DNA from: Promicromonospora umidemergens
GTDB lineage: Bacteria; Actinomycetota; Actinomycetes; Actinomycetales; Cellulomonadaceae
DNA: 64,000 nucleotides
Direction: 5' to 3'
Assembly: GCF_024171995.1 (NCBI RefSeq)
Contig: NZ_JAMTCT010000005.1
Location: 310,001-374,000, forward strand
Position 1 is the stretch's first letter. Each line of letters opens with the position of its first letter. Under the pieces are notes generated by a model, which had not been told where the DNA came from, did not search any database, and saw only the letters and a program-made list of their open reading frames with translations. Positions 3 to 15,159 of this stretch are shown piece by piece. The translations under genes were made by a program, and so were the position numbers.

Positions 3-323
3 GAGATCGGTGACGAGTTCCTCAGCCAGGAAGCGCAGGGGCAGTTCGTGCTCGTGCACCTCACGGTGGAGAACATCGGCGACGAGTCGCAGTACTTCGA
101 TGGCAACAACGTCACGGGCTACGACGCGAAGAACCGGGAGTTCGCGGCAGACACCGAGGCGGCGATCTACCTCGATGACTCCAACTCCTTCCTCAACGAG
201 ATCAACCCTGGGAACTCGGTGATGGGAGTCGTGGTCTTCGACGTACCTGCCGACGTCAAGCTGAGCCAGCTGGAGCTGCACGACTCGGCCTTCTCCGGCG
301 GCGTCGAGGTGGCGCTGGGCTGA
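3..323 (+). CDS. DUF4352-like extracellular domain protein, C-terminal part
   Basis: The reading frame is open from the window edge to a TGA at 321-323, so only the last ~106 residues are present. They read as one beta-rich domain with the order GQFVLVHLTVENIGDE, then YFDG, then a YDAKNREF stretch and SVMGVVVFDVP near the end. This order resembles the DUF4352 (telokin-like) fold found at the C-terminus of Gram-positive secreted or membrane-anchored proteins. The N-terminal signal or lipobox is off the window, so location and function cannot be read. The family match rests on motif order alone. Confidence 0.6.
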   Translation, partial: EIGDEFLSQEAQGQFVLVHLTVENIGDESQYFDGNNVTGYDAKNREFAADTEAAIYLDDSNSFLNEINPGNSVMGVVVFDVPADVKLSQLELHDSAFSGGVEVALG

Positions 324-667
324 CGCCCATGACGGCGCGGCCTGAGAGCTGGCGGTCCGTCGAACCGGCCGAGGCTGGTGCGGCGGACCGGCCGCTGGTG
401 TGCGATTCACCCGGGTGACATTGCGTCAGCAGCGACGATATCGGATTTGAGCACCTGGACCAGATACCAGGATGAGCGGCGACGAGCTGCTGAACGGTCT
501 GGGACTGGACGCCCGCCCGACGCCCGACCCAGCCGACCAAGAGGGCTGATAACCCGGGTTCACGAGGTCGCGCTCCTGCCCGCGTGGCTTCGGCCGCATC
601 CTGGACGAGTCACACCGCACGGTACGCAACTAGGCTCACTGACCAGCACCTTCGTAGGGGAGGCACC
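324..667. other. Intergenic region upstream of the type I RM operon
   Basis: No convincing gene lies here. A 25-codon ATG frame (472-549, beginning MSGDELLNGL) has weak coding character and could be a gene remnant. TAGGCT at 631-636 is a possible -10 for the downstream operon, with no obvious -35. A GGGGAGG ribosome-binding site (657-663) sits just before the hsdR start. Confidence 0.4.
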
Positions 668-3600
668 ATGCACGGCACGGAGTCCGAGTGGGAGCACCGC
701 GCGCTGGAGTACCTCGGCACCTCCCTCATGTGGGAGCGTCTGCACGGTACGGAGATCGCGCCGGGCGCCACGTCCACGAAGGGCCACCCGCTGTTTGCGG
801 CGTCGGGCGCCGCACTGCCGCAGCGTGAGTCGTGGGACGAGGTGGCGATCCCGTCGCGGCTGCGCGCCGCGATGGGCCGGCTGAACCCCGGCGTGCCCGC
901 GCGGTTCCTCGACCAGGCGCTGCTGGAGATCCTCCGCCCGACGTCGCAGGACGCGATCACCGAGAACCAGCGGATCCACGACATCCTGACCAACGGGTAC
1001 CCGCTGACGTACATCGAGGACGGGCGCGAGCGCACGCCGTCGGTCCGGCTGATCTCCGACGACGTGTCCGCGAACGAGTACCTCGCGGTGAACCAGGTGA
1101 CGGTACGGGTCGGGGACGTGGAGCGCCGGTTCGACGTGGTGCTGTACGTGAACGGCATGCCGGTGGTCGTGATCGAGCTGAAGAACGCCGGCGACGAGCA
1201 CGCAACCGTCGCGACGGCGCACGCCCAGGTCGCCGGGTACGTGCGCGCACTGCCCATAGCGTTCCGGTTCTGCGTGCTCACGCTCGTGTCCGACGGCGTG
1301 GACGCTCGCTACGGCACGCCCTTCACGCCCCTGAACCACTTCTCGCCCTGGAACGTGGACGACGACGGCGCGGAGGTCGCGTTCGGCGCGCAGGTGCGCC
1401 AGGTCTCGGGCGGGCTGGGCGTTGTGGACGACGACCAGCCGCTGTCCGCGCTGGAGGTGGCGCTGGAAGGCCTGTTCAACCAGCAGCGGTTCGGGCAGCT
1501 GCTGCACGGTTTCGTCGCCTTCTCGACCGGGGACGACGGCCTGGTCAAGCGCATCGCCAAGCCCCACCAGTACTTCGCGGTCACCAAGGCGGTCGGCGCC
1601 ACCGTGCAGGCGGTCGGCGACGACGGCCGGGCCGGCGTCGTCTGGCACACCCAGGGCTCGGGCAAGTCGATGGAGATGGAGCTGTACGCCAACCAGGTGG
1701 CGCGGCACCCGGAGCTGCTGAACCCGACGATCGTCGTGGTCACCGACCGGTCCGAGCTCGACGGCCAGCTGCACCAGACGTTCGAGTCCTCCGCGCTGCT
1801 CCCCGAGGTCCCGCGCCGCGTGCTGCGACGTGCCGAGCTGCGCCAGGAGCTCGGCGACCGCGCGTCGGGCGGCATCTACTTCACGACCCTGCAGAAGTTC
1901 AGCCTCACCGCGGACGAGAAGCGGGCCGGGCACGCGCACCCCGTCCTGTCGGCACGACGCAACATCGTGCTGATCGTCGACGAGGCGCACCGCAGCCACT
2001 ACGACGACCTCGACGGGTACGCCTGGCACCTGAAGAACGCCCTGCCGAACGCCACCCTCATCGCGTTCACCGGCACCCCGATCTCCGAACGTGACCGCGA
2101 CACGAAGGCCGTCTTCGGCGACGTCATCGACGTGTACGACCTGACCCGCGCCGTGCGCGACGGCGCCACCGTGCCCGTCTACTTCGAGCAGCGCATGATC
2201 CGGGTCGGCCTGGACGGCGCGATCGATCCCGAGGCCATCGACGCCACGGCGGACGAGGCCACCGCAGGCCTGGACGACGCCGAGCGCGACCGGTTGCAGA
2301 AGTCGGTGGCCGCGATCAACGCCATCTACGGCGCCCCGGCGCGCCTGGAGGAGCTGGCCCAGGACCTGGTGACCCACTGGGAGGCACGCCGCGACGCGAT
2401 GGTCGAGCTCGTCCGGGACACGGGCCTAGCGGCCGCACCGGCGGGCGGGTCACCGGTCGTGCTCGCGACGGGGGCGCCCGGCAAGGCGCTCGTGGTGTGC
2501 TCCACCCGGGAGATCTGCGCGCGGCTCTACGACCGGATCGTCGCGCTGCGCCCTGACTGGCACTCGCCGGACCTGGCGGCGGGCCGCATCAAGGTCGTCT
2601 ACTCGGGGGACGCGCGGGACCAGCCGCCGGTCAGCGACCACGTGCGGCGGGACCATGAGAACGCGACGATCCGCCAGCGGCTCAAGGACCCCACCGACCC
2701 GCTGGAGATCGTCATCGTCAAGGACATGATGCTCACCGGCTACGACTCGCCGTCCCTGCACACGCTCTACCTCGACCGCCCGATGCGCGGTGCCCTGCTC
2801 ATGCAGACCCTCGCCCGCGTGAACCGCACGTTCCGTGGCAAGGACGCCGGCCTGCTCGTCGGGTACGCCCCGGTGGCCGACAACCTGCGCGAGGCCCTGG
2901 CGGAGTACACCGACGACGACCGCCGGGAGAAGCCCGTCGGGCGGACCGTCGAGGACGCCGAGAAGCTCGCCCGCGAGCTGATCGCGCAGATCGCCGAGCT
3001 GGTCGACCCGTCGGGCTGGCGGGCGCGACTCCGGGCCGGCCGGCAGAAGAACCCGCACCTCGCCTGGACGGATACCTTGCTGCGGACCCTCGGCTGGCTG
3101 CGTAGCCCGGACACGCCGGGGAACCGCCCACCCACGGGTGCCGTACCCGACGGTGACTACCCGGCGTTCGAGTCCCGCCTGGACCAGTTCCGGCGCAGGG
3201 CCGCCATGCTGAACCGGGCATGGGCGCTCGCGGGCCGGGCCGCAGCGCTGCGGGACGTGGCCGAGGACGTGCGGTTCTACGAGGAGCTGCGGATCTGCAA
3301 CGGCAAGCAGGACGCGCGCGAGCGTCAGGCCACCGGGCAGCCGATCCCCGAGGAGGTGCTGCGCCTGCTCGGCCAGCTCGTCGCGACCTCGGTCGAGTCC
3401 GACTCGGTGGTCGACATCTATGAGGAGGCCGGCCTGGCGACGCCGCGCCTGGACCAGCTGGACCGGTCCTACCTGGAGCGGGCGCAGAAGTCGGAGAACC
3501 AGCAGCTCGCCGTGGAGGCGCTGCGTGACCTGGTGGCACAGGAGACCGTGCGCCTGACCGACGGCAACATCGTGCGGCGCGAGCTGTTCTCCGAGCGGCT

Positions 3601-4006
3601 GCAGAAGGTGATGCTGCGCTACACGAACACCAACCTCACCTCGGCGGAGGTGATCGTGGCGCTCTTCGAGCTGGCGCAGGATCTCGCCAAGGAGGAGGGT
3701 CGTGCGGCGGAGCTCGACCTCTCCGTGCGGGCCGTGGCGTTCTACGACGTGCTGCGTTCGGCCGGGAGCGTCGGCGACGTGCTGGACGACAGCGCACTGC
3801 GCGAGGTCGCGGAGGAGCTCACGCGGATCGTCAATCGCGACACCCGGACCGACTGGACGGTGCGCGACGACGTCAAGGCCAAGCTGTTCACCTCCGTGAA
3901 CCGCCTCCTTGCCAAGCACCGGTACCCGGCCGACCTGCGCCAGGACGCCGTGGTGCTCGTGCTCAAGCAGATGGCGGTCGTCACCCGCCAGGTGTGGGCG
4001 TCGTGA
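668..4006 (+). CDS. hsdR: Type I restriction endonuclease subunit R
   Basis: 1112-aa motor and nuclease subunit of a type I restriction-modification complex. It translocates DNA with ATP and cuts remote from the unmethylated site. An N-terminal HsdR_N nuclease domain carries FDVVLY followed by VVVIELKNAG (D ~155, E-x-K ~170), a PD-(D/E)xK arrangement. Superfamily 2 helicase motifs follow: QGSGKS (~330), VDEAH (~437), FTGTP (~468), GYDSP, and QTLARVNR (~712). A long helical C-terminus follows, as in other HsdR proteins. The ATG at 668 was chosen because it has a strong GGGGAGG site and starts MHGTESEWEH; an in-frame ATG at 584 has no such site. The stop overlaps the next gene (GTGA), so translation is coupled. 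Confidence 0.95.
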   Translation: MHGTESEWEHRALEYLGTSLMWERLHGTEIAPGATSTKGHPLFAASGAALPQRESWDEVAIPSRLRAAMGRLNPGVPARFLDQALLEILRPTSQDAITENQRIHDILTNGYPLTYIEDGRERTPSVRLISDDVSANEYLAVNQVTVRVGDVERRFDVVLYVNGMPVVVIELKNAGDEHATVATAHAQVAGYVRALPIAFRFCVLTLVSDGVDARYGTPFTPLNHFSPWNVDDDGAEVAFGAQVRQVSGGLGVVDDDQPLSALEVALEGLFNQQRFGQLLHGFVAFSTGDDGLVKRIAKPHQYFAVTKAVGATVQAVGDDGRAGVVWHTQGSGKSMEMELYANQVARHPELLNPTIVVVTDRSELDGQLHQTFESSALLPEVPRRVLRRAELRQELGDRASGGIYFTTLQKFSLTADEKRAGHAHPVLSARRNIVLIVDEAHRSHYDDLDGYAWHLKNALPNATLIAFTGTPISERDRDTKAVFGDVIDVYDLTRAVRDGATVPVYFEQRMIRVGLDGAIDPEAIDATADEATAGLDDAERDRLQKSVAAINAIYGAPARLEELAQDLVTHWEARRDAMVELVRDTGLAAAPAGGSPVVLATGAPGKALVVCSTREICARLYDRIVALRPDWHSPDLAAGRIKVVYSGDARDQPPVSDHVRRDHENATIRQRLKDPTDPLEIVIVKDMMLTGYDSPSLHTLYLDRPMRGALLMQTLARVNRTFRGKDAGLLVGYAPVADNLREALAEYTDDDRREKPVGRTVEDAEKLARELIAQIAELVDPSGWRARLRAGRQKNPHLAWTDTLLRTLGWLRSPDTPGNRPPTGAVPDGDYPAFESRLDQFRRRAAMLNRAWALAGRAAALRDVAEDVRFYEELRICNGKQDARERQATGQPIPEEVLRLLGQLVATSVESDSVVDIYEEAGLATPRLDQLDRSYLERAQKSENQQLAVEALRDLVAQETVRLTDGNIVRRELFSERLQKVMLRYTNTNLTSAEVIVALFELAQDLAKEEGRAAELDLSVRAVAFYDVLRSAGSVGDVLDDSALREVAEELTRIVNRDTRTDWTVRDDVKAKLFTSVNRLLAKHRYPADLRQDAVVLVLKQMAVVTRQVWAS

Positions 4007-6090
4007 CGCCTGACCTGGGTGAGTCCGGCCAGGGGCAGTCCGACCCGGCGCTGAGCGGTCTCACGCTCACGATGCCCGACATCGCGGAGCTTGCGCGAGT
4101 GAAGCGGGCGGTGGTGTCCATGTGGCGCAAGCGGTATGCGAACGGCGCACTCCCGTTTCCCGCGCCGGTCGATGCGGAGGCGAAGCAGCCCCGCTTCCAC
4201 GCCGTCGAGGTGGCGGCCTGGGTCGAGCGGCGCGGCCAGGGCAACAACCCGGATTTTCGCGCGGATGCCGCGGTCGTGGCCGCTCTGACCGACGACGGCG
4301 ACCCCGCCCGGGCGTTCGACGCGCTGACCGCGCTGCTGGCGCTGGCGCCCTACACGTCAGCGCCGCTCGCCTCCATCGACCCGGACGAGCTGGTGGACCT
4401 CGCGGACGAGGTGGACCCGCACGACCGGTTCGCCTACCGCGAGACCGTCGGCCTCGGGTCATACCTGCCTGGTGCGGCTCGGCACGCGGGGGCGGTGGCC
4501 TCGGCTGCCTACAACCCGGCGAGTGCGATCGAGCGTCTGCTAGGGGCTCGGCACCGCACCGGTGACCCGCGCCTGACCGGGACGGTGCTGCGGGCACCGG
4601 TCCTGAACCTGGTCGCGGACGTGCTCGCCGCTCTGGCGCCGGACGACGAGGAGCTGGTCGTCACCGACCCGAGGCCCGGCTGCGGCGATCTGCTGACCGC
4701 GGTGCTCGGACGCCTGGAACGGGTCGAGCCCGTGCTGGCCCACGTGCCCGCCGGGGACGGCGACGCGCTGCGGCTCGCCCGCCGTAGGCTCGCGGCGAAC
4801 TCGTGGCCGGTCGAGACTTCCTCCGGCGACGTCGACGCGCACCTCGTGACGCAGGTGCCGGCACTCGACGAACCTGACCTCGACCCGGCGGACGTGCTGA
4901 GCCGGGTGGACCACGCCGTGCTGGGGCTACCGATCGGCAGAGCGGCGATCGTCGTCGGGCCGGCGTCTGCCCTCGTCGACGAGCTCCGTGACCCTGGGGC
5001 GGAGAAGATCCGCGACGACCTGATGAGATCCGGGAGGCTGCGGTCGGTGGTGCTGCTGCCGGCTGGTCTCGTGGTGTCCCGGCCGCGGCAGAAGATGGCG
5101 GTCTGGGTGCTGGGTACCGTGCTGCCAGGCGCATCGTTCGGTAAGAAGCACCTGGTCGTGGCCGACCTCAGCGAGCACGCACCCGACGGCGACGAGTTCG
5201 ATGGTGGCGTGGTCCACGATCTGCTGACCGACCTCATCGCCGCCCAGGGGACCGAGCGTGACGCCGATGCGCACCACTTCCGGTTCGCCAAGTTCCTGGA
5301 CTCGGGTGCCGTCGTCGCGCGCCGGCAGAGCCTGCTCGGGGCTGCGAAGGCGACCCGGGACCTGGTCTTCCGTGACCCCGCTGGAGCCGAGCAGCACCTG
5401 CACGAGCTGATGGCGCACCTGACGGATCCCGTCCGGCCCAGCGAGCTCCCCGTGGTCCGCGGACTGTCTGGTGGGGAGCCGGGCGGGCGCTACACGATAG
5501 AGGGACTGGTCGGGCACGGATTCGTCCATCGCAGGTCTGGTCACCGCCTGCACGCCGTCGACGTCGTGCAGGGCGCCGCCGAGGGCACGGTGCCCGTGAT
5601 CGGCGCCGCGGAGGTTGTCGGAGCTGCCCCGTGGGGCGGTCGCCGGATCGACCGGCTCGGCTTCCTGGCCCGGTACAGCAGCGGACGGCTGACCGAGCCC
5701 GGCGACATCGTCTACGTCACGAGCCCGCGGCCGGCGGCCGTCGTGGACGTGGAGGGGTTCTGCGTGGTCGAGACGCCGGCGCGGATCTTCCGGGTCCCGG
5801 GGCGGGCGCGAGGCAGGGTCGTGCCGGAGGTGCTCGCCGCGGATATCAACGCGGCCAGCTCCGATGCCCGGGATCCCGAGGCGTGGACCGTTCGGCTTGT
5901 ACCGCTGGACCAGGGCGCCGCCCTGGCCACGACCCTCACGGTGCTGCGTGAGGAGGAACGCGCGCTCCGAGACCGCCTGCAGACGCTCACCGACCTCCGG
6001 GGAGGTCTTCTCGACGGCGTCGCGTCCGGGGTGGTCGGGCTGAGCACGGAGAATGTCAGTGTGCCGCGCGAGGATGTGCGCGGTCGATGA
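4003..6090 (+). CDS. Degenerate N6-adenine methyltransferase/TRD-like protein in the type I RM operon
   Basis: 695 aa, inserted between hsdR and hsdM and coupled to both by 4-nt overlaps (GTGA in, ATGA out). Residues ~25-70 look like a helix-turn-helix (MPDIAELARVKRAVVSMWRK). The central part resembles the HsdM/N6-MTase fold, but motif I is DPRPGCGDLL instead of DPACGSGG. At the place where the catalytic (N/D)PP(F/Y) is expected (~307) the sequence reads VLGLPIG. The region ~500-640 resembles an HsdS-type target-recognition half (LTEPGDIVYVTSPRPAAVVD), followed by a helical segment (EEERALRDRLQTLTDL). It therefore looks like a catalytically dead M-S fusion. A DNA-binding or scaffolding role in the complex is inference. 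The GTG at 4003 is preferred over GTG 3994 because of the overlap. Confidence 0.75.
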   Translation: MTPDLGESGQGQSDPALSGLTLTMPDIAELARVKRAVVSMWRKRYANGALPFPAPVDAEAKQPRFHAVEVAAWVERRGQGNNPDFRADAAVVAALTDDGDPARAFDALTALLALAPYTSAPLASIDPDELVDLADEVDPHDRFAYRETVGLGSYLPGAARHAGAVASAAYNPASAIERLLGARHRTGDPRLTGTVLRAPVLNLVADVLAALAPDDEELVVTDPRPGCGDLLTAVLGRLERVEPVLAHVPAGDGDALRLARRRLAANSWPVETSSGDVDAHLVTQVPALDEPDLDPADVLSRVDHAVLGLPIGRAAIVVGPASALVDELRDPGAEKIRDDLMRSGRLRSVVLLPAGLVVSRPRQKMAVWVLGTVLPGASFGKKHLVVADLSEHAPDGDEFDGGVVHDLLTDLIAAQGTERDADAHHFRFAKFLDSGAVVARRQSLLGAAKATRDLVFRDPAGAEQHLHELMAHLTDPVRPSELPVVRGLSGGEPGGRYTIEGLVGHGFVHRRSGHRLHAVDVVQGAAEGTVPVIGAAEVVGAAPWGGRRIDRLGFLARYSSGRLTEPGDIVYVTSPRPAAVVDVEGFCVVETPARIFRVPGRARGRVVPEVLAADINAASSDARDPEAWTVRLVPLDQGAALATTLTVLREEERALRDRLQTLTDLRGGLLDGVASGVVGLSTENVSVPREDVRGR

Positions 6091-7712
6091 GAGAGGAAGG
6101 CACTGTGCCTCCGAGGATGATGGTGTCGGCGCCTGCGGCGTCGACGATGAAGGAACTCAAGGACACGCTCTGGAAGGCCGCGGACAAGCTCCGGGGCTCG
6201 ATGGACGCGAGCCAGTACAAGGACGTGGTGCTGGGGCTGGTGTTCCTCAAGTACGTGTCCGACGCGTTCGACGAGCGGCGTGAGAACGTGCGCGCGGAGC
6301 TCCAGGCCGAGGGTCTGGACGAGGCCACGATTGCTGAGCTGCTCGACGACCCGAACGAGTACCGAGCGGCCGGCGTGTTCTGGGTGCCGCGGCACGCGCG
6401 CTGGGCGTATCTCGCACGATTCGCCAAGGGCCGGCCCGCGGGAGCCGACGGTGAGGCGGTGGACCCCGCGACGGTCGGCGAGCTGATCGACGCGGCCATG
6501 GAGCACATCATGGGCTCCAACCCGTCTCTCAAGGGCACGCTACCCACGTTGTTCAACCGCGAGTCGGTGGACCAGCGCCGCCTGGGCGAACTTGTCGACC
6601 TGCTCAACTCCGCGCGCTTCCGGGGCGACGGTGCACGCCGGGCACGTGACGTGCTCGGTGAGGTGTACGAGTACTTCCTGGGCAATTTCGCCGCAGCCGA
6701 GGGCAAGCGGGGCGGGGAGTTCTACACGCCGCCCGGTGTGGTGCGGGTGCTCGTCGAGGTGCTCGAGCCATACCAGGGCAACGTGTACGACCCGGCGTGC
6801 GGTTCGGGCGGCATGTTCGTCCAGGCCGAGAAGTTCCTCGAGCGCCACGGTGCCAACCCGCAGGACATCTACGTGTTCGGTCAGGAGCTCAACGAGCGCA
6901 CCTGGCGCATGGCCAAGATGAACCTGGCCGTCCACGGGCTGACCGGCCAGCTGGGCGCCAAGTGGGAGGACACCTTCGTCCGGGACCTGCACCCGGACAC
7001 GAAGATGGACTTCGTCATGGCCAACCCGCCCTTCAACATCAAGGACTGGGCACGGTCGGAGGACGACGCGCGCTGGGCCTACGGCGTGCCGCCGACGGGC
7101 AACGCGAACTACGCGTGGATCCAGCACATCCTGTCCAAGCTGGGCCCGACGGGTACCGCGGGCGTGGTGATGGCGAACGGGTCGATGTCGTCCAACTCCG
7201 GGGGAGAGGGGCAGATCCGGGCGCAGATCGTCGAGGCGGACTTGGTCTCGTGCATGGTCGCGCTGCCGACCCAGCTCTTTCGGTCTACCGGGATTCCGGT
7301 GTGCGTGTGGTTCTTCGCGCGGGACAAGGGTGCGCGTGCGGGCGAGGTGCTGTTCATCGACGCGCGCAACCTGGGACATATGGCGGATCGTGTCGAGCGG
7401 GCGCTCTCCGACGACGACATCACCAAGATCGCGGACACGTACCACGCGTGGCGGGGGAAGCCTTCGGCTGCCGAGAAGGGACTCGTCTACGAGGACGTGG
7501 CCGGATTCAGCCGGTCGGCGACGCTGGCGGAGATCAAGGAGACCGGGTACGCGCTGACGCCTGGCCGGTACGTCGGTGCCGCCGACGTCGAGGAGGACGG
7601 CGAGCCGCTGGACGAGAAGATCGCGCGGCTGAAGAAGGAGCTGTACGAGGCGTTTCACGAGTCGGCGCGGCTGGAGGCCGTGGTGCGAGAGCAGCTGGGG
7701 AGGGTCGAGTGA
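6087..7712 (+). CDS. hsdM: Type I modification DNA methyltransferase subunit M
   Basis: 541-aa N6-adenine methyltransferase subunit that protects host sites and forms the M2S core of the complex. An N-terminal HsdM_N helical domain is visible (LKDTLWKAADKLRG, then YKDVVLGLVFLKYVSDAF). The SAM-binding motif I DPACGSGG (~235) and catalytic motif IV NPPFN (~313) are intact, in contrast to the preceding degenerate paralogue. The C-terminal helix (DEKIARLKKELYEAF) is the part that usually packs on HsdS. The start ATG overlaps the upstream stop (ATGA) and the stop overlaps hsdS (GTGA), so all four genes form one translationally coupled operon. Confidence 0.95.
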   Translation: MREEGTVPPRMMVSAPAASTMKELKDTLWKAADKLRGSMDASQYKDVVLGLVFLKYVSDAFDERRENVRAELQAEGLDEATIAELLDDPNEYRAAGVFWVPRHARWAYLARFAKGRPAGADGEAVDPATVGELIDAAMEHIMGSNPSLKGTLPTLFNRESVDQRRLGELVDLLNSARFRGDGARRARDVLGEVYEYFLGNFAAAEGKRGGEFYTPPGVVRVLVEVLEPYQGNVYDPACGSGGMFVQAEKFLERHGANPQDIYVFGQELNERTWRMAKMNLAVHGLTGQLGAKWEDTFVRDLHPDTKMDFVMANPPFNIKDWARSEDDARWAYGVPPTGNANYAWIQHILSKLGPTGTAGVVMANGSMSSNSGGEGQIRAQIVEADLVSCMVALPTQLFRSTGIPVCVWFFARDKGARAGEVLFIDARNLGHMADRVERALSDDDITKIADTYHAWRGKPSAAEKGLVYEDVAGFSRSATLAEIKETGYALTPGRYVGAADVEEDGEPLDEKIARLKKELYEAFHESARLEAVVREQLGRVE

Positions 7713-8935
7713 ACCAATTCGTTGAATATTCGCTGATGGATGCAGTCGAGGCGATCGTCGATAATCGCGGACGTTCCTGCCCAACGGTTCCTAGCGGGAT
7801 CCCTCTGATTGCAACGAACTGTCTCAAGCTCGGACAGCGAGAGCCCGTTCTTGAGAACGTGCGATTCGTGAGTCAGGAGACGTATGATTCGTGGTTCCGA
7901 GCACACCCGGAACCTGATGATGTACTACTCGTGTGCAAGGGTAACGCGGGCAGAGTGGCACTCGTGCCAGATCCAGTGCCCTTCTGCATCGCCCAGGATA
8001 TGGTTGCGCTACGTGCAAATCGCGAAACGGCTATCGGGCGATACTTGTACTACCGGCTGCTCTGTGCTGATGTTCAAGCGTCTATCGTGAATATGCATGT
8101 GGGAACTATGATCCCGCACTTCAAAAAGGGTGATTTCGGCAGACTTCGATTCTCGGTTCACAAGTCTCTCGACCGGCAGTGCGCCATTGCAGATGTCCTA
8201 GGTGCCATTGATGACAAGATCGCGGTCAACACCAAGCTCGCGACCACTGCAGACAACTACCTGAGCGTTCTCTTCGAGCACGCCCTGCGGGATGGGGGAG
8301 GCGAAGCAACCCTGCGGGACATTGCCGAAGTCAATCCAGAAAAGCGATCACCGTCAAACGGCATGCTGCGCTACATCGACATTGCGTCGGTCGGTGTCGG
8401 CTTCTTCGACTTCCCAAAAGAGATGTCCTGGGCCGACGCACCTGGTCGAGCACGTCGCGGGGTTCGTTCGGGAGACATTGTTTGGTCGACGGTCCGGCCG
8501 AATCGGCGATCCCACGCGCTCATCCTTGATGGGAACCCCTCATTGGTGGCCTCGACTGGTCTGGCGGTTATCCGATCGGCTGAGTGGCCATGGGTGTACG
8601 AGGCCATGCGGCGGCCAGAGTTTACCGCTTACCTTGAGGCTGTTGCTGAGGGGAGTGCCTACCCCGCGGTGCGGGCCGACAAATTCCTCAATGCGAAGTT
8701 GCCGGTTGTTGATTCGGCAGCCCGAGAAGTCTTCAACGAACTCGCGGCAGCGGTGCGTAGTGCGGTTTCTCTAAAAATGGTCGAGAACCGCCGCCTCGCA
8801 GCGACCCGCGATGCCCTCCTACCCGCTCTCATGTCTGGTCGACTCGCTGTCCGAGACGCGGAGGCTGCCGTCGAGCGTGCCGTTGATAGCGGAGCCATCG
8901 AACCCGAACCGGTGGCAAGCGGCGCCCTCTGGTGA
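7709..8935 (+). CDS. hsdS: Type I restriction-modification specificity subunit S
   Basis: 408 aa. Two target-recognition domains each bind one half of a bipartite DNA site, and they are separated by conserved helices. TRD1 covers about residues 1-165 and ends in the helix DRQCAIADVLGAIDDKI. TRD2 covers about 195-360, with GVRSGDIVWSTVRPNRRS, and ends in a helix ending LLPALMSGRLAV. The start GTG overlaps the hsdM stop. Base composition is clearly lower in GC than in hsdR and hsdM, with codons such as AAT and ATA. This is typical of hsdS genes that recombine or are exchanged independently. The recognition site cannot be read from sequence. Confidence 0.92.
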   Translation: MNQFVEYSLMDAVEAIVDNRGRSCPTVPSGIPLIATNCLKLGQREPVLENVRFVSQETYDSWFRAHPEPDDVLLVCKGNAGRVALVPDPVPFCIAQDMVALRANRETAIGRYLYYRLLCADVQASIVNMHVGTMIPHFKKGDFGRLRFSVHKSLDRQCAIADVLGAIDDKIAVNTKLATTADNYLSVLFEHALRDGGGEATLRDIAEVNPEKRSPSNGMLRYIDIASVGVGFFDFPKEMSWADAPGRARRGVRSGDIVWSTVRPNRRSHALILDGNPSLVASTGLAVIRSAEWPWVYEAMRRPEFTAYLEAVAEGSAYPAVRADKFLNAKLPVVDSAAREVFNELAAAVRSAVSLKMVENRRLAATRDALLPALMSGRLAVRDAEAAVERAVDSGAIEPEPVASGALW

Positions 8936-11968: not shown

Positions 11969-12106
11969 ATGAGCACAACCAGCACCCAGGCCCGCGACGG
12001 CGACCTGAACCTGAACGTGCGGATCGTGACCCGCGGCGCAGTGAACGCCGCCCTGCTGGGCGACACCGACGACGGCTGCGACACGCTCAAGAACGGCGAC
12101 TGCTGA
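11969..12106 (+). CDS. lanA: FxLD-family lanthipeptide precursor
   Basis: A 45-aa precursor. The leader is MSTTSTQARDGDLNLNVRIV, with the family's FxLD box (usually FDLDVR) diverged to LNLNVR. The core ends ALLGDTDDGCDTLKNGDC. It contains two Cys (37, 45) and two Thr (33, 39) and no Ser, so at most two methyllanthionine rings can form. Five Asp residues (32, 34, 35, 38, 44) are possible targets for the isoaspartate-type methyltransferase encoded downstream. A GGAGG site lies 5 nt before the ATG. The cluster shows no dedicated protease or ABC exporter, so export may use a housekeeping system; this is inference. Confidence 0.88.
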   Translation: MSTTSTQARDGDLNLNVRIVTRGAVNAALLGDTDDGCDTLKNGDC

Positions 12107-12122
12107 CCCAGGACCGTCCCAG

Positions 12123-12160
12123 CCCTGGGTGCGGTCCCGTGATCGGGGCCGCACCCAGGG
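12123..12160 (+). promoter_or_regulatory. Long hairpin between lanA and lanB
   Basis: A 17-bp stem pairs 12123-12139 with 12144-12160, including one G-U pair, around a 4-nt loop. It begins 17 nt after the precursor stop and ends 50 nt before lanB. There is no T-tract. It is placed to act as a partial terminator or 3'-end stabiliser, giving more precursor than enzyme message. Confidence 0.75.
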
Positions 12161-12210
12161 CACTACACCCACTCCATTACCTGCCGCATCGCCGAAGGGA
12201 TGAACCGCAC

Positions 12211-15159
12211 ATGGGTTCCTGGGCACCGGACATGAAGACCGCGGTGCTGCGCGCCAGCACCCATCTCATCGACTCCGCCGATCTGGCGAAGTGGCCCGGC
12301 GACGATGCCGACTACGACGCCTGGCGGGCCTGGATCGAGGCCGCGTGGTCACAGCCCGGGATCAGCGCCGCGGTCACGTTGGCAAGCCCGTCACTTGCTG
12401 ACCGCATCGGCGGCCTGTTGACCGGCCGGGTAAGCGGGTCGCGCGTCGCCCGCCGTGCCGCCACGTCGCTAGCCGGATACATCGTCCGGGCACGCGGCCG
12501 CGCGACTCCTTTCGGGGCCTTCGCCGGCACCACCACGGCGTCCTTCGCCGCTACGGCGGCCTGGAACTGGAGTCCTGTTCATCGGGCGCGGCTGCGACCC
12601 GACGCGCGCTGGCTCTCTGGCGTCGTCCAGCACCTGGAGTCGGATCCCGACGTCCTGCACCGGATCAGTGTCCAGACCAGCAACCTCCTGACGGGACACG
12701 TCGGCGACATCGTCGTGCCGTGGCAGCCGCACCTGTCCGCACCGCCCGTCGAGGGGCAGGACGCGGACGTCCACATCCAGCGCCTGGATGTGGTCGACCG
12801 CATCCTGCGCCTGGCGGCGATCCCCATCTCGGTCGGCGACCTCGCGACCCAGGTGGCCGATGAGCAGCCGGGCTGCACGGGGGAGACCGTCGTCCGGCTG
12901 GTTGCGCAGTTGGTCGGTGTCGGCGCACTGGTCACCGCCTTGCGCCCGCCCGGGACCGTCACCGATCCGCTTGCCCACATCGTGGGCCACCTCATCAGAA
13001 CGGGCGCTGGCTCGACGTCGACCAGGCAGCAGCTCGCCGACCTAGCAGCTCAGCTGCGAGATCCTCAGGCCAGCACGCTCCAGGACACGGCACGCGCCGC
13101 CACAGCCGCAGCGACGACAATGCGGGAGCTCGCTCCCGCGATAGAAGTCCCACCGGTCGCGATCGACCTCCAGGTCGGCGCCCGGGCGGTACTTCCCGAC
13201 CGGGTCGCGGCCGAGGCCGTCGCCGCGGCCGAGACGCTCGTCAGGGTCGCACCTCCCAGAGACGCGGGATGGAGCACCTGGCGGGCGCAGTTCCTCGACC
13301 GGTACGGGCCCGCCACCCCGATACCGGTGACCTGTGTGATCGACCCGATCACCGGGATCGGCCTCCCGGACCACTTCACCACCCCTACCGCCGGGCCCGT
13401 CACGCGACGTGACGAGGCGCTACTGGCCCTGGCCGGGCAAGCCATGCTGGATCGCCGCCGCGTGATCGAGCTCGACACCGCGACGCTGGCCACTCTCGGG
13501 GGAGAGCCAGGTGCCGAGTTGCTCGACGGCGCGGGAGCTGATCTGTGGTTCGACGTGCGAGCGGCGTCGCTGCGGGCGCTCCAGTCGGGGGAGTTCCGGC
13601 TCGGCGTGAGCGGGTTCGGGCGCCGGATGGCGGCTGCGGGCCGTTTTGCGGACTTGCTCGACATCCAGCCGCAGGACGCCCGGGCACCCAAGGATGGCAG
13701 CGGGACCCTGGTTGCCCAGATGTCCTTCCCGCCGCGGGACCTGCGGACCGAGAACACTCTGAGGGTGCCACTCGCGCACGACCATGTGATCGCCCTCGGC
13801 GAGCACCGAACACCTGACCCGCACGTCATGACGCTGGACGACCTGGCCGTCATGGGGGACTCCACCGGCAGGCTCCACCTGGTCTCGCGACGGCACGAGT
13901 CCCGCGTTGAGGTACGCGTCCCGCATGCCGGTGCACGGCACACCATGCCGCCGGTCGCCCGCTTCGTCTACGAGGTGTCCCGCACGGCCAGCCCCGTGAT
14001 CACCGGGTTCGACTGGGGCGCCGCCACGGCACTGCCTCACCTGCCGCGTGTCACGTGCGGGCGCGCGATCCTGTCCCCGGCGCGCTGGCGGCTACGCCTA
14101 CCGGCCGACTCCGATCGAGTGGAAGAAGCCCTCGACCGGTATGGCCTACCTCGGCATGTGGATGCCGGCACCGGCGACCAGATCCTGCGCCTTGACCTAC
14201 ACGAGGCGATGGACCGCACCCTGCTGCACGACCGCGCGACATCTGCTGAGGGCTGGGTGACGCTACGCGAGGCACCCGAGCCGAGCCACTACGGCTGGTG
14301 CCAGGGCCGAGCCCACGAAGTCGTCCTCGCTATGACCACCCGCGGGCACACCCGGTCCACGCCACTGGTGGTTGCGCCTGCCGAGGCGCACGCCTCTATG
14401 CGGCGGGGCGTGACATTCGCGCGCATCGCGGCTCCGTCAGAGACACACGAGGCGATCCTGATCGGCCACCTCTCCGCCCTGACCGAGCCGTGGCCCGCGG
14501 GCTCGTGGTGGTACACCCGGGCGCGCGGCGAGCTGCGGTTGCGGGTCCACGACACCGGCCTACCCGCGACCGCCGGTCGAATCGCGGCCTGGTCCGACCA
14601 ACTCCGCAACCTGGGTCTGGCGCGAAAGGTCACTCTGGACGAGTACATCCCCGAGACCGGGCGCTATGGGACCGGCCAGACGCTGACCGCAGCCGAGGCA
14701 CTGTTCGCCGCAGACTCCCAGGTCGCCCTCATCCTGCTGAAGCGGTTGCAGACTCGGCCCGATACGCACCGGCGGGCGCTGCTCGCGGCCAGCCTGGCAG
14801 ACCTCACCGCCGCACTGACCGGCGGGCACGACGCAGGGATGCGATGGCTGATCGACCACCCCCGCCTGTCTGGGACTCCGCAGGCACCCCGGCGGGACGA
14901 GCGCGCTCAGGCCCTCGCGCTCGCCGACACCGTCCCAGAGAACCGGCTCGCCGCCGCGTGGCGGGCCCGCGCGACGGCGGCAGGCGTCTACACCGAGCGA
15001 CTCCACACGGACGGTGTCCGTGCGGCGCCGGTGATTGGGTCGCTGCTGCACATGCACCACGTCCGTGTCGCGGGCATCGACCCTGACGAGGCGGTCACCC
15101 ACAAGTTGGCTCGCGCCATCGCTCTGAAGCACGCGGCGACCCAGGAGGTTGTCACATGA
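12211..15159 (+). CDS. lanB: Class I lanthipeptide dehydratase (LanB)
   Basis: 982 aa. Uses glutamyl-tRNA to glutamylate Thr/Ser of the precursor, then eliminates glutamate to give dehydro residues. The N-terminal LanB signature YIVRARGRATPFGAFAG lies at ~90-106 of the glutamylation domain. The C-terminal SpaB_C elimination domain has GSWWYTRARGELRLRVH, YIPETGRYG, FAADSQVALILL, and SLLHMHHVRVAGID near the end. Both domains are in one chain, as in full-length NisB-type enzymes. The ATG at 12211 follows GAAGGGA; longer in-frame starts run into the hairpin. It overlaps lanC by ATGA. Confidence 0.92.
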   Translation: MGSWAPDMKTAVLRASTHLIDSADLAKWPGDDADYDAWRAWIEAAWSQPGISAAVTLASPSLADRIGGLLTGRVSGSRVARRAATSLAGYIVRARGRATPFGAFAGTTTASFAATAAWNWSPVHRARLRPDARWLSGVVQHLESDPDVLHRISVQTSNLLTGHVGDIVVPWQPHLSAPPVEGQDADVHIQRLDVVDRILRLAAIPISVGDLATQVADEQPGCTGETVVRLVAQLVGVGALVTALRPPGTVTDPLAHIVGHLIRTGAGSTSTRQQLADLAAQLRDPQASTLQDTARAATAAATTMRELAPAIEVPPVAIDLQVGARAVLPDRVAAEAVAAAETLVRVAPPRDAGWSTWRAQFLDRYGPATPIPVTCVIDPITGIGLPDHFTTPTAGPVTRRDEALLALAGQAMLDRRRVIELDTATLATLGGEPGAELLDGAGADLWFDVRAASLRALQSGEFRLGVSGFGRRMAAAGRFADLLDIQPQDARAPKDGSGTLVAQMSFPPRDLRTENTLRVPLAHDHVIALGEHRTPDPHVMTLDDLAVMGDSTGRLHLVSRRHESRVEVRVPHAGARHTMPPVARFVYEVSRTASPVITGFDWGAATALPHLPRVTCGRAILSPARWRLRLPADSDRVEEALDRYGLPRHVDAGTGDQILRLDLHEAMDRTLLHDRATSAEGWVTLREAPEPSHYGWCQGRAHEVVLAMTTRGHTRSTPLVVAPAEAHASMRRGVTFARIAAPSETHEAILIGHLSALTEPWPAGSWWYTRARGELRLRVHDTGLPATAGRIAAWSDQLRNLGLARKVTLDEYIPETGRYGTGQTLTAAEALFAADSQVALILLKRLQTRPDTHRRALLAASLADLTAALTGGHDAGMRWLIDHPRLSGTPQAPRRDERAQALALADTVPENRLAAAWRARATAAGVYTERLHTDGVRAAPVIGSLLHMHHVRVAGIDPDEAVTHKLARAIALKHAATQEVVT

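What the first reader, a model, noticed from the sequence alone, without database searches (positions are those of the whole stretch)
4003..6090. Extra, catalytically degenerate methyltransferase-TRD subunit inside a type I RM operon
Between hsdR and hsdM, and translationally coupled to both, lies a 695-aa protein with HTH, methyltransferase-like, TRD-like and helical parts. Its SAM motif is altered (DPRPGCGDLL) and the NPPF catalytic motif is replaced by LGLPIG, while the neighbouring hsdM is intact. A conserved dead M-S fusion could broaden or gate recognition, act as a regulator, or form a distinct four-gene defence system.
Basis: partly seen in the sequence, partly recalled or inferred. 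Interest (0 to 1): 0.7.

Follow-up and report, generated by a model that had tools for sequence, protein, structure and literature searches.

The report
Dead methyltransferase controlling a restriction operon
Next to a standard bacterial DNA-restriction system sits a conserved, enzymatically dead copy of its DNA-methylating enzyme with an added DNA-binding head, and a matching DNA site in front of related operons suggests that it acts as the system's own regulator.

Summary
In detail: a 695-aa gene X (4003-6090) lies between hsdR and hsdM, overlapping both. X is wHTH + HsdM N-domain + methyltransferase fold + TRD + C-terminal helix, with SAM and catalytic motifs degraded; motif IV is QVPA (aa 284-287), not LGLPIG. 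It is no one-off: none of 96 aligned actinobacterial X proteins has motif IV in place, and X lies within 154 nt upstream of hsdM in 93 of 94 loci with hsdM. New here: 93 of 95 homologous loci carry GATAA-N6-TTATC (at most 1 of 10 mismatched) upstream of X; the other two carry GTTAA-N6-TTAAC. A -10-like hexamer follows at 30-34 nt in 87 of 95. The site is absent from 20 HsdM loci without intact X. In subsets it also precedes a separate hsdR or an SMC-like ATPase gene. X's TRD stays similar while HsdS swaps. Best reading: X is a dedicated transcriptional regulator of this type I RM family, made from a dead M-S fusion and probably reading the palindrome through its HTH. Sign of control and role of the dead domains are unknown. 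The window's own site is degenerate (half-site at 546, before hsdR) and its gene order is unique among loci seen.

The parts
546..565 (+). Degenerate operator-like half-site CTGATAACCCGGGTTCACGA upstream of hsdR (core 548-563, 2 of 10 mismatches to GATAA-N6-TTATC)
   Evidence: only CTGATAA in the 64 kb window; no exact or 1-mismatch core in the window; no -10-like hexamer at the family spacing
631..636 (+). -10-like hexamer TAGGCT before hsdR
   Evidence: the same hexamer occurs in several X-first promoters, but here it is 65 nt after the half-site instead of 30-34
668..4006 (+). hsdR (likely ATG start 668 after GGGGAGG; longest ORF starts 584)
4003..6090 (+). X: dead HTH-M-TRD protein, 695 aa, overlapping hsdR and hsdM
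4060..4242 (+). Winged HTH of X (aa 20-80; recognition helix aa 35-44)
   Evidence: weak MerR/BldC/excisionase-like Foldseek matches, best E 0.05; PHROG DNA-binding and excisionase hits, best E 6.5e-6
4243..5352 (+). HsdM-like part of X: N-terminal helical domain (aa 81-192) and methyltransferase fold (aa 193-450)
   Evidence: 3lkd_B Z 21.7, rmsd 4.3, 337 residues aligned, model 87-452; 7vru_B Z 21.0, rmsd 3.8, 329 aligned
4666..4695 (+). Altered motif I DPRPGCGDLL (aa 222-231)
4852..4863 (+). Position of catalytic motif IV, here QVPA (aa 284-287)
5482..5892 (+). TRD-like (HsdS half) domain of X (aa 494-630) with the conserved TEPGD
   Evidence: M-S protein 7eew spans model 87-689 (512 aligned, rmsd 29.8, so domain by domain); HsdS 3okg listed by Foldseek
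5902..6030 (+). C-terminal long helix of X (aa 634-676)
6087..7712 (+). hsdM, intact NPPF
7709..8935 (+). hsdS

Best explanation
X is a dedicated transcriptional regulator of a family of actinobacterial type I restriction-modification systems, built from a catalytically dead HTH-methyltransferase-TRD (M-S fusion) protein. As a dimer it most likely binds the palindrome GATAA-N6-TTATC through its N-terminal winged HTH. That palindrome is centred about 41 bp upstream of a -10-like hexamer and would control the X-hsdM-hsdS(-hsdR) promoter and, in subsets of loci, a separate hsdR, an SMC-like ATPase gene or a divergent gene. The dead M and TRD parts are probably kept as a fixed sensing or protein-contact module, for example one reporting the presence of HsdM/HsdS. 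Shown by computation: architecture, loss of the catalytic motif, linkage, co-inheritance, the palindrome and its promoter phasing. Inferred: that X binds the palindrome, dimerisation, sign of control, the sensing role, and that the window copy still works although its own site is degenerate.
For: Linkage: X within 154 nt upstream of hsdM, same strand, in 93 of 94 loci with hsdM, the window included. Co-inheritance: pairwise identities correlate with HsdM (r 0.83, n 91) and HsdR (r 0.84, n 58), weakly with HsdS (r 0.22, n 91). Operator: spotted in 17 loci; in the 78 others exact in 64, 1 mismatch in 12, 2 in 2, against shuffles 0 / 0.05 / 2.6. Overall 81 of 95 exact and 93 of 95 within 1 mismatch; spacers 0-5 and 7-11 give none; the other two loci carry a symmetric GTTAA-N6-TTAAC. 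Phasing: TANNNT 30-34 nt after the palindrome in 87 of 95; in the unrestricted scan of 93 sites no other offset has more than 2. Specificity: no core with 0 or 1 mismatch in 20 control loci with HsdM but no intact X, nor in 10 orphan HTH-methylase loci. Genomes: exact core in 14 of 19 with X and 2 of 15 without. Blind scan of 394 genomes: 12 of 26 sites at an X gene, 1 at the ATPase gene. Regulon: of 18 further sites (0 or 1 mismatch) in 1.58 Mb, 9 precede an SMC-like ATPase gene and 5 a separate hsdR. HTH as reader: in the two GTTAA loci the only HTH residue unique to both is aa 34, beside the recognition helix; the TRD has none.
Against: The window's own copy has only a half-site (2 of 10 mismatches), no -10 at the family spacing and a rearranged gene order, so regulation here may be lost or altered. 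Five of 19 X genomes, G000 among them, have no exact core, and the three exact sites of G250 are not at its X operon. Thirteen of 26 blind-scan sites are at neither X nor the ATPase gene, against 9 for the reversed pattern. HTH-operator covariation rests on two related loci. The 95 loci are not phylogenetically independent, and most were found with HTH and TRD peptide patterns, which favours loci with those parts conserved. No binding or expression data.
Confidence: 0.78

Rival explanations
1. The TRD, not the HTH, reads the operator: X is a dead type I-like methyltransferase that binds its own bipartite N6 target as a repressor or activator, in the manner of a nuclease-dead Cas9; the HTH serves another role.
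For: A palindrome with a 6-bp spacer is the kind of target a dimer of single-TRD M-S proteins would read (recalled from type I enzymes). The X TRD stays similar while HsdS varies, as the operator stays constant.
Against: Of residues shared uniquely by the two altered-operator loci, one lies in the HTH (aa 34) and none of 137 in the TRD. HTH identity exceeds TRD identity in every HsdM-identity bin, though both regions supplied search patterns.
Confidence: 0.15
2. X is a structural subunit of the methylation/restriction complex (a dead M-S partner that gates or broadens recognition); the palindrome belongs to another regulator.
For: Fold matches HsdM and M-S proteins; X lies beside hsdM in nearly all loci.
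Against: In 35 operon pairs with HsdM at least 95% identical the X TRD has median identity 73% and HsdS 29%; TRD exceeds HsdS in 35 of 35. The palindrome is absent from 20 HsdM loci without intact X. An outside regulator should have more sites: X genomes have 0-4 exact cores each, and 13 of 15 genomes without X have none.
Confidence: 0.08
3. X is a phage- or DNA-sensing component of a four- or five-gene defence system (RM plus SMC-like ATPase), with gene regulation only a by-product.
For: The ATPase gene shares the operator in streptomycete-type loci, either downstream (9 loci) or divergent (3 loci).
Against: The operator is present in 93 of 95 loci, whereas the ATPase link was seen in these subsets only; ATPase presence was not searched for in the other loci.
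Confidence: 0.08
4. X is an active methyltransferase with an unusual catalytic motif.
For: Fold intact in the model; 24 of 96 loosely keep motif I.
Against: 0 of 96 have [NDS]PP[FYW] at the aligned position; two regex hits (L098, L100) lie off position, and six rows have gaps there.
Confidence: 0.02

Closest known systems
Regulatory (HTH-fused) type II methyltransferases: M.SsoII, Ecl18kIM, EcoRIIM (PMC12707154 and PMC3874152, passages; PMC3978073, start of abstract in a search listing)
   Same: N-terminal HTH fused to a DNA methyltransferase encoded in the RM operon, with an operator at its own promoter.
   Different: Those are active methyltransferases (M.SsoII is cytosine-5 by its abstract; the others recalled) that both protect DNA and regulate. 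X is a separate, catalytically dead N6-type M-S protein beside an intact hsdM in a type I system.
RptR (PMC12255303, abstract and introduction read)
   Same: Transcriptional regulator encoded first in type I RM islands, with a conserved palindromic site.
   Different: RptR is a small alpha-helical repressor binding TAGCTA in gammaproteobacteria; X is a roughly 630-790 aa dead methyltransferase with a GATAA-N6-TTATC site in actinobacteria.
C proteins (type II; one reported for a Mycoplasma gallisepticum type I locus, PMC12707154, passage)
   Same: Dedicated HTH regulator in an RM operon.
   Different: Small proteins without a methyltransferase or TRD part (recalled).
Type I M-S proteins such as 7eew (Vibrio vulnificus MTase)
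   Same: M plus TRD plus helix architecture, domain by domain.
   Different: X adds an HTH and has degraded motifs I and IV.
Orphan HTH-N6 methylase-TRD proteins (L057-L066)
   Same: Full-length profile match, probability 99.9, E 2.7e-36, 592 columns.
   Different: [NDS]PP is kept in 8 of 8 aligned, with an aromatic fourth residue in 5 of 8; no HsdR or HsdS beside them in the loci seen; no GATAA-N6-TTATC core with 0 or 1 mismatch.

Membership tests
Type I RM operon (hsdR-hsdM-hsdS) | HsdR motor/nuclease, HsdM with NPPF, HsdS | tested here: met
Active N6-adenine methyltransferase (X) | [NDS]PP[FYW] motif IV | tested here: not met
   0 of 96 at the aligned position; window QVPA
HsdM / M-S fusion fold (X) | HsdM N-domain plus MTase fold plus TRD | tested here: met
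   Model pLDDT 83; 3lkd Z 21.7, rmsd 4.3, 337 aligned; profile hits to StySJI and EcoKI M, best E 8e-6; 2 of 19 members hit Pfam N6_Mtase, the window member none
RM-linked transcriptional autoregulator | DNA-binding domain | tested here: met
   wHTH by model and PHROG hits; the structural match alone is weak, best E 0.05
RM-linked transcriptional autoregulator | Conserved operator at its own promoter in the family | tested here: met
   93 of 95 loci within 1 mismatch
RM-linked transcriptional autoregulator | Operator intact in the window itself | tested here: not met
   Only a 2-mismatch half-site before hsdR
RM-linked transcriptional autoregulator | Binding and effect on transcription shown | not testable with these tools
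   Needs EMSA and reporter assays
Regulatory type II methyltransferase (M.SsoII kind) | HTH fused to an active methyltransferase that protects DNA | tested here: not met
   X lacks motif IV
RptR | Small alpha-helical protein binding TAGCTA | tested here: not met
   X is 695 aa and its family site is GATAA-N6-TTATC; RptR features from PMC12255303; no direct sequence comparison with RptR was run

The most novel reading that the evidence does not exclude
X is a pseudo-methyltransferase switch: its dead M and TRD domains monitor the RM state (HsdM/HsdS supply, SAM or a fixed DNA target) and set its HTH to drive or silence divergent promoters, so that one regulator couples a type I RM system to a second defence module (zinc-hook-like SMC ATPase) and to variable divergent genes across actinobacteria.
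Probability: 0.35. Interest if true: 0.87.

Novelty: new variant of a known kind. Interest (0 to 1): 0.76.

Why it matters
Transcriptional control of type I RM systems is little known (the 2025 review PMC12707154, section 20, read, says 'surprisingly little information'). A widespread regulator made from a dead copy of the enzyme it sits beside, with a base-precise operator found from sequence alone, makes that question directly testable and would explain how these systems are kept in balance and tied to other defences. It would also show how a methyltransferase can be turned into a transcription factor.

Tried and rejected
Considered and rejected: an active but unusual methyltransferase (motif IV absent at the aligned position in 96 of 96); a one-off insertion; a subunit widening specificity (TRD similar while HsdS swaps); a global regulator owning the palindrome (sites few and linked to X). 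LGLPIG as motif IV was rejected by alignment.

Led nowhere or inconclusive: Rfam on two loci with a conserved CCCCCAAT hairpin upstream gave nothing. Whether X activates or represses cannot be told: fixed phasing and no conserved -35 lean to activation, but actinobacterial -35 boxes are often weak (recalled). The HTH-only Foldseek search gave only weak matches (best E 0.05). A near-palindrome within hsdR at 3886 (2 mismatches to GTTAA-N6-TTAAC) is probably coding chance. The 13 blind-scan sites at neither X nor the ATPase gene are not explained; the reversed pattern gives 9. A phmmer check of the ATPase gene on six-frame translations found it in only 4 of 9 loci; tblastn then found it in 9 of 9.

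Rows and limits: 96 X proteins = window + 19 + 76. Left out of X counts: L053 (X cut by a contig end), L055 (143-aa fragment), L038 (HTH-only hit), four genome-contig loci that duplicate whole-genome loci (L095, L120, L128, L149), and the HTH-only hits. L040 and L147 have no hsdM in view (L147 near a contig end) and are outside the 94. Kept although imperfect: L141 (HTH in a second frame) and L170 (tail in a second frame), and near-duplicates such as L146/L148. Gaps and overlaps use longest-ORF starts, so some overlaps are overstated. The 87 hexamers were sought only at offsets 29-34; one search is the unrestricted scan. Control loci: 20 regions fetched, chosen among the HsdM matches because one search gave no X there; L215 holds only 219 nt upstream of hsdM. 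Among the 17 strongest HsdM matches (at least 683 bits) 13 have intact X, 2 only C-terminal X remnants (L204, L206), 2 none (L205, L207). In one search, 22 of the 26 blind-scan sites were examined as loci; the other four were compared with the places and with L245.
Full report
Observation. The window carries hsdR (668 or 584 to 4006), X (4003-6090), hsdM (6087-7712) and hsdS (7709-8935) on the + strand, each overlapping the next by 4 nt. HsdR, HsdM and HsdS are unmistakable. X on its own hits nothing in Pfam, NCBIfam or PDB sequences; PHROGs gives DNA-binding and excisionase-type hits for aa 22-95, best E 6.5e-6. A profile of 19 homologues hits type I M proteins in the PDB (StySJI M E 8e-6, EcoKI M E 7e-5), and 2 of 19 members, not the window's, hit Pfam N6_Mtase.

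Anatomy. An AlphaFold2 model (mean pLDDT 83, pTM 0.62) shows a winged HTH (aa 20-80), then a region matching HsdM including its N-terminal helical domain (3lkd_B Z 21.7, rmsd 4.3, 337 residues aligned, model 87-452; 7vru_B Z 21.0, rmsd 3.8, 329 aligned), then a TRD-like domain and a long C-terminal helix. The M-S protein 7eew spans model 87-689 (Z 19.1, 512 aligned, but rmsd 29.8, so the domains match one by one rather than as a rigid body). The HTH modelled alone (pLDDT 84) has only weak Foldseek matches, many of them MerR, BldC, RacA or excisionase proteins (best E 0.05).

Catalytic decay. In 96 aligned X proteins the motif IV position reads mostly Q[YFLV]P; [NDS]PP[FYW] occurs there in 0 of 96 (two regex hits, in L098 and L100, lie off position; six rows have gaps there). 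Motif I is loosely kept in 24 of 96. In the same loci 92 of 94 HsdM keep NPPF; the two others are incomplete ORFs.

Distribution. X was found in 5 of 39 relatives, the window's own genome included and one by the HTH only; none of the 12 other same-genus genomes has it. 50 of 394 class genomes match, many by the HTH alone. A genome-contig scan returned 150 relatives, the best 80 kept, from Cellulosimicrobium, Arthrobacter, Cryobacterium, Rhodococcus, Streptomyces and others. In a 396-genome phylum sample 25 match the profile; the 19 outside the class match only in part (best E 8e-15). Outside the window X lies upstream of hsdM on the same strand within 154 nt in 92 loci and at 776 nt in one; 29 of these overlap by 1 or 4 nt by longest-ORF starts. 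Where hsdR is in view it is downstream in 68 of 68 (27 have none in the stretch held), so the window's R-X-M-S order is unique here. Of the 17 strongest HsdM matches in the class, 13 have intact X, 2 have C-terminal remnants of X and 2 none.

Evolution. X matches orphan HTH-N6 methylase-TRD proteins over its full length (prob 99.9, E 2.7e-36), which keep [NDS]PP in 8 of 8; X looks like a dead derivative of that architecture (inference). X identities correlate with HsdM (r 0.83, n 91) and HsdR (r 0.84, n 58) but weakly with HsdS (r 0.22, n 91). In 35 operon pairs with HsdM at least 95% identical, the X TRD exceeds HsdS identity in 35 of 35 (medians 73% and 29%; HsdS under 40% in 26 of 35, bins). 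Whatever X's TRD meets is therefore constant and does not follow the system's DNA specificity (inference).

The palindrome. Aligning upstream regions of 17 Arthrobacter-like loci showed a conserved CTGATAA-N6-TTATCAG. Tested on the 78 other loci, the core GATAA-N6-TTATC is exact in 64, has 1 mismatch in 12 and 2 in 2; dinucleotide shuffles give 0, 0.05 and 2.6. Over all 95 it is exact in 81 and within 1 mismatch in 93; spacers 0-5 and 7-11 give none, spacers 12-15 give no exact core and 1-7 loci with 1 mismatch. The remaining two (L041, L043) carry GTTAA-N6-TTAAC, changed symmetrically in both arms. A TANNNT hexamer lies 30-34 nt after the palindrome in 87 of 95 (82 of them at 30-32); in the unrestricted scan of 93 sites no offset outside 30-34 has more than 2. 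No conserved -35 is seen. In 37 of 95 a second TANNNT faces the other way, 31 or 32 nt from the other end, while no other offset up to 99 has more than 2; divergent genes there are of several kinds.

Specificity and regulon. The core with 0 or 1 mismatch is absent from 20 control loci with HsdM but no intact X (one of them, L215, holds only 219 nt upstream of hsdM) and from 10 orphan HTH-methylase loci. Exact cores occur in 14 of 19 genomes with X and 2 of 15 without. In 394 class genomes the pattern YGATAASNNNNSTTATCR has 26 sites in 22 genomes: 12 at an X gene (one, in G349, a short X fragment), 1 at the ATPase gene, 13 elsewhere; the reversed pattern has 9. Within the 95 loci (1.58 Mb) 18 further sites with 0 or 1 mismatch occur: 9 lie about 110-200 nt before an SMC/RecF-like ATPase gene after hsdR in streptomycete-type loci (9 of 9 confirmed by tblastn), 5 lie about 75-120 nt before the first HsdR-like codon of a separate hsdR (L115, L124, L137, L143, L152), 4 elsewhere. 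At least 19 other loci with a separate hsdR show no such site. In three genomes an ATPase gene is divergent from X with the site between them. One ATPase (L245) has PF02463 and a CPVCG motif (the zinc-hook reading is mine).

Which domain reads it. In L041 and L043 the only HTH residue unique to both is S34, next to the recognition helix; the TRD has none of 137, the N-helical and MTase regions one each. L049 and L051 (one arm GGTAA) share P38 in the recognition helix. This favours the HTH, on few events.

The window itself. Its only candidate is CTGATAACCCGGGTTCACGA at 546, the only CTGATAA in 64 kb of 67.8% GC, about 100 nt before the hsdR ATG, with no -10-like hexamer at the family spacing (TAGGCT is at 631). 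No exact or 1-mismatch core exists in the window, and no exact core in the whole genome. So the regulator model rests on the family; this copy is rearranged and its operator is decayed or changed.

Comparison with the literature. Type II methyltransferases with an N-terminal HTH repress their own genes (PMC3874152 and PMC12707154, passages; PMC3978073, start of abstract in the listing); a catalytically inactive EcoRIIM mutant still represses if its sites are methylated by another enzyme (PMC12707154, passage). RptR regulates type I islands in gammaproteobacteria by TAGCTA sites (PMC12255303, abstract and introduction). A C-protein relative is reported for one Mycoplasma type I locus (PMC12707154, passage). 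PMC12839542 (BREX survey) was looked at in passages only and shows nothing like X there. No description of this family turned up in ten searches of the held open-access library, judged from listings; papers outside that library were not seen.

Verdict. A conserved pseudo-methyltransferase regulator of type I RM operons, probable (0.78) but unproven by experiment; sign of control and sensing role open.

Noticed in passing
window about 11970-15159 (+): A short peptide ORF ending ...DTDDGCDTLKNGDC followed by a 1006-aa protein that looks like a lanthipeptide dehydratase (recalled resemblance; ORFs).
   Followed up: no
window 3-323 (+): DUF4352 protein (E 2.3e-23) just upstream of hsdR; small membrane or lipoprotein-like genes also sit beside the operator in many homologous loci, there divergent.
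   Followed up: partly
L134, L113 and relatives, about 100 nt upstream of the palindrome: Hairpin with varying stem and constant CCCCCAAT loop in Arthrobacter-like loci; no Rfam match in the two loci searched.
   Followed up: partly
L245 412-2853; ends of L161-L163, L165, L166, L170, L171, L173: SMC/RecF-like ATPase genes preceded by the same palindrome as the RM operon.
   Followed up: partly
L204 6572-6916, L206 6711-6956: C-terminal remnants of X directly upstream of hsdM where X is otherwise gone.
   Followed up: partly
L118, L124, L129, L130 and other Rhodococcus-type loci: Divergent gene of about 290 aa next to the operator in a cluster of 10 loci; an RNase H-like domain in the one scanned (L118, PF00075 E 1.1e-10).
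   Followed up: no
L040/L149: X and its palindrome present without any hsdM, hsdS or hsdR hit in the 18 kb held.
   Followed up: partly
L057-L066: Orphan HTH-N6 methylase-TRD proteins in several class genomes, function unknown to me.
   Followed up: partly
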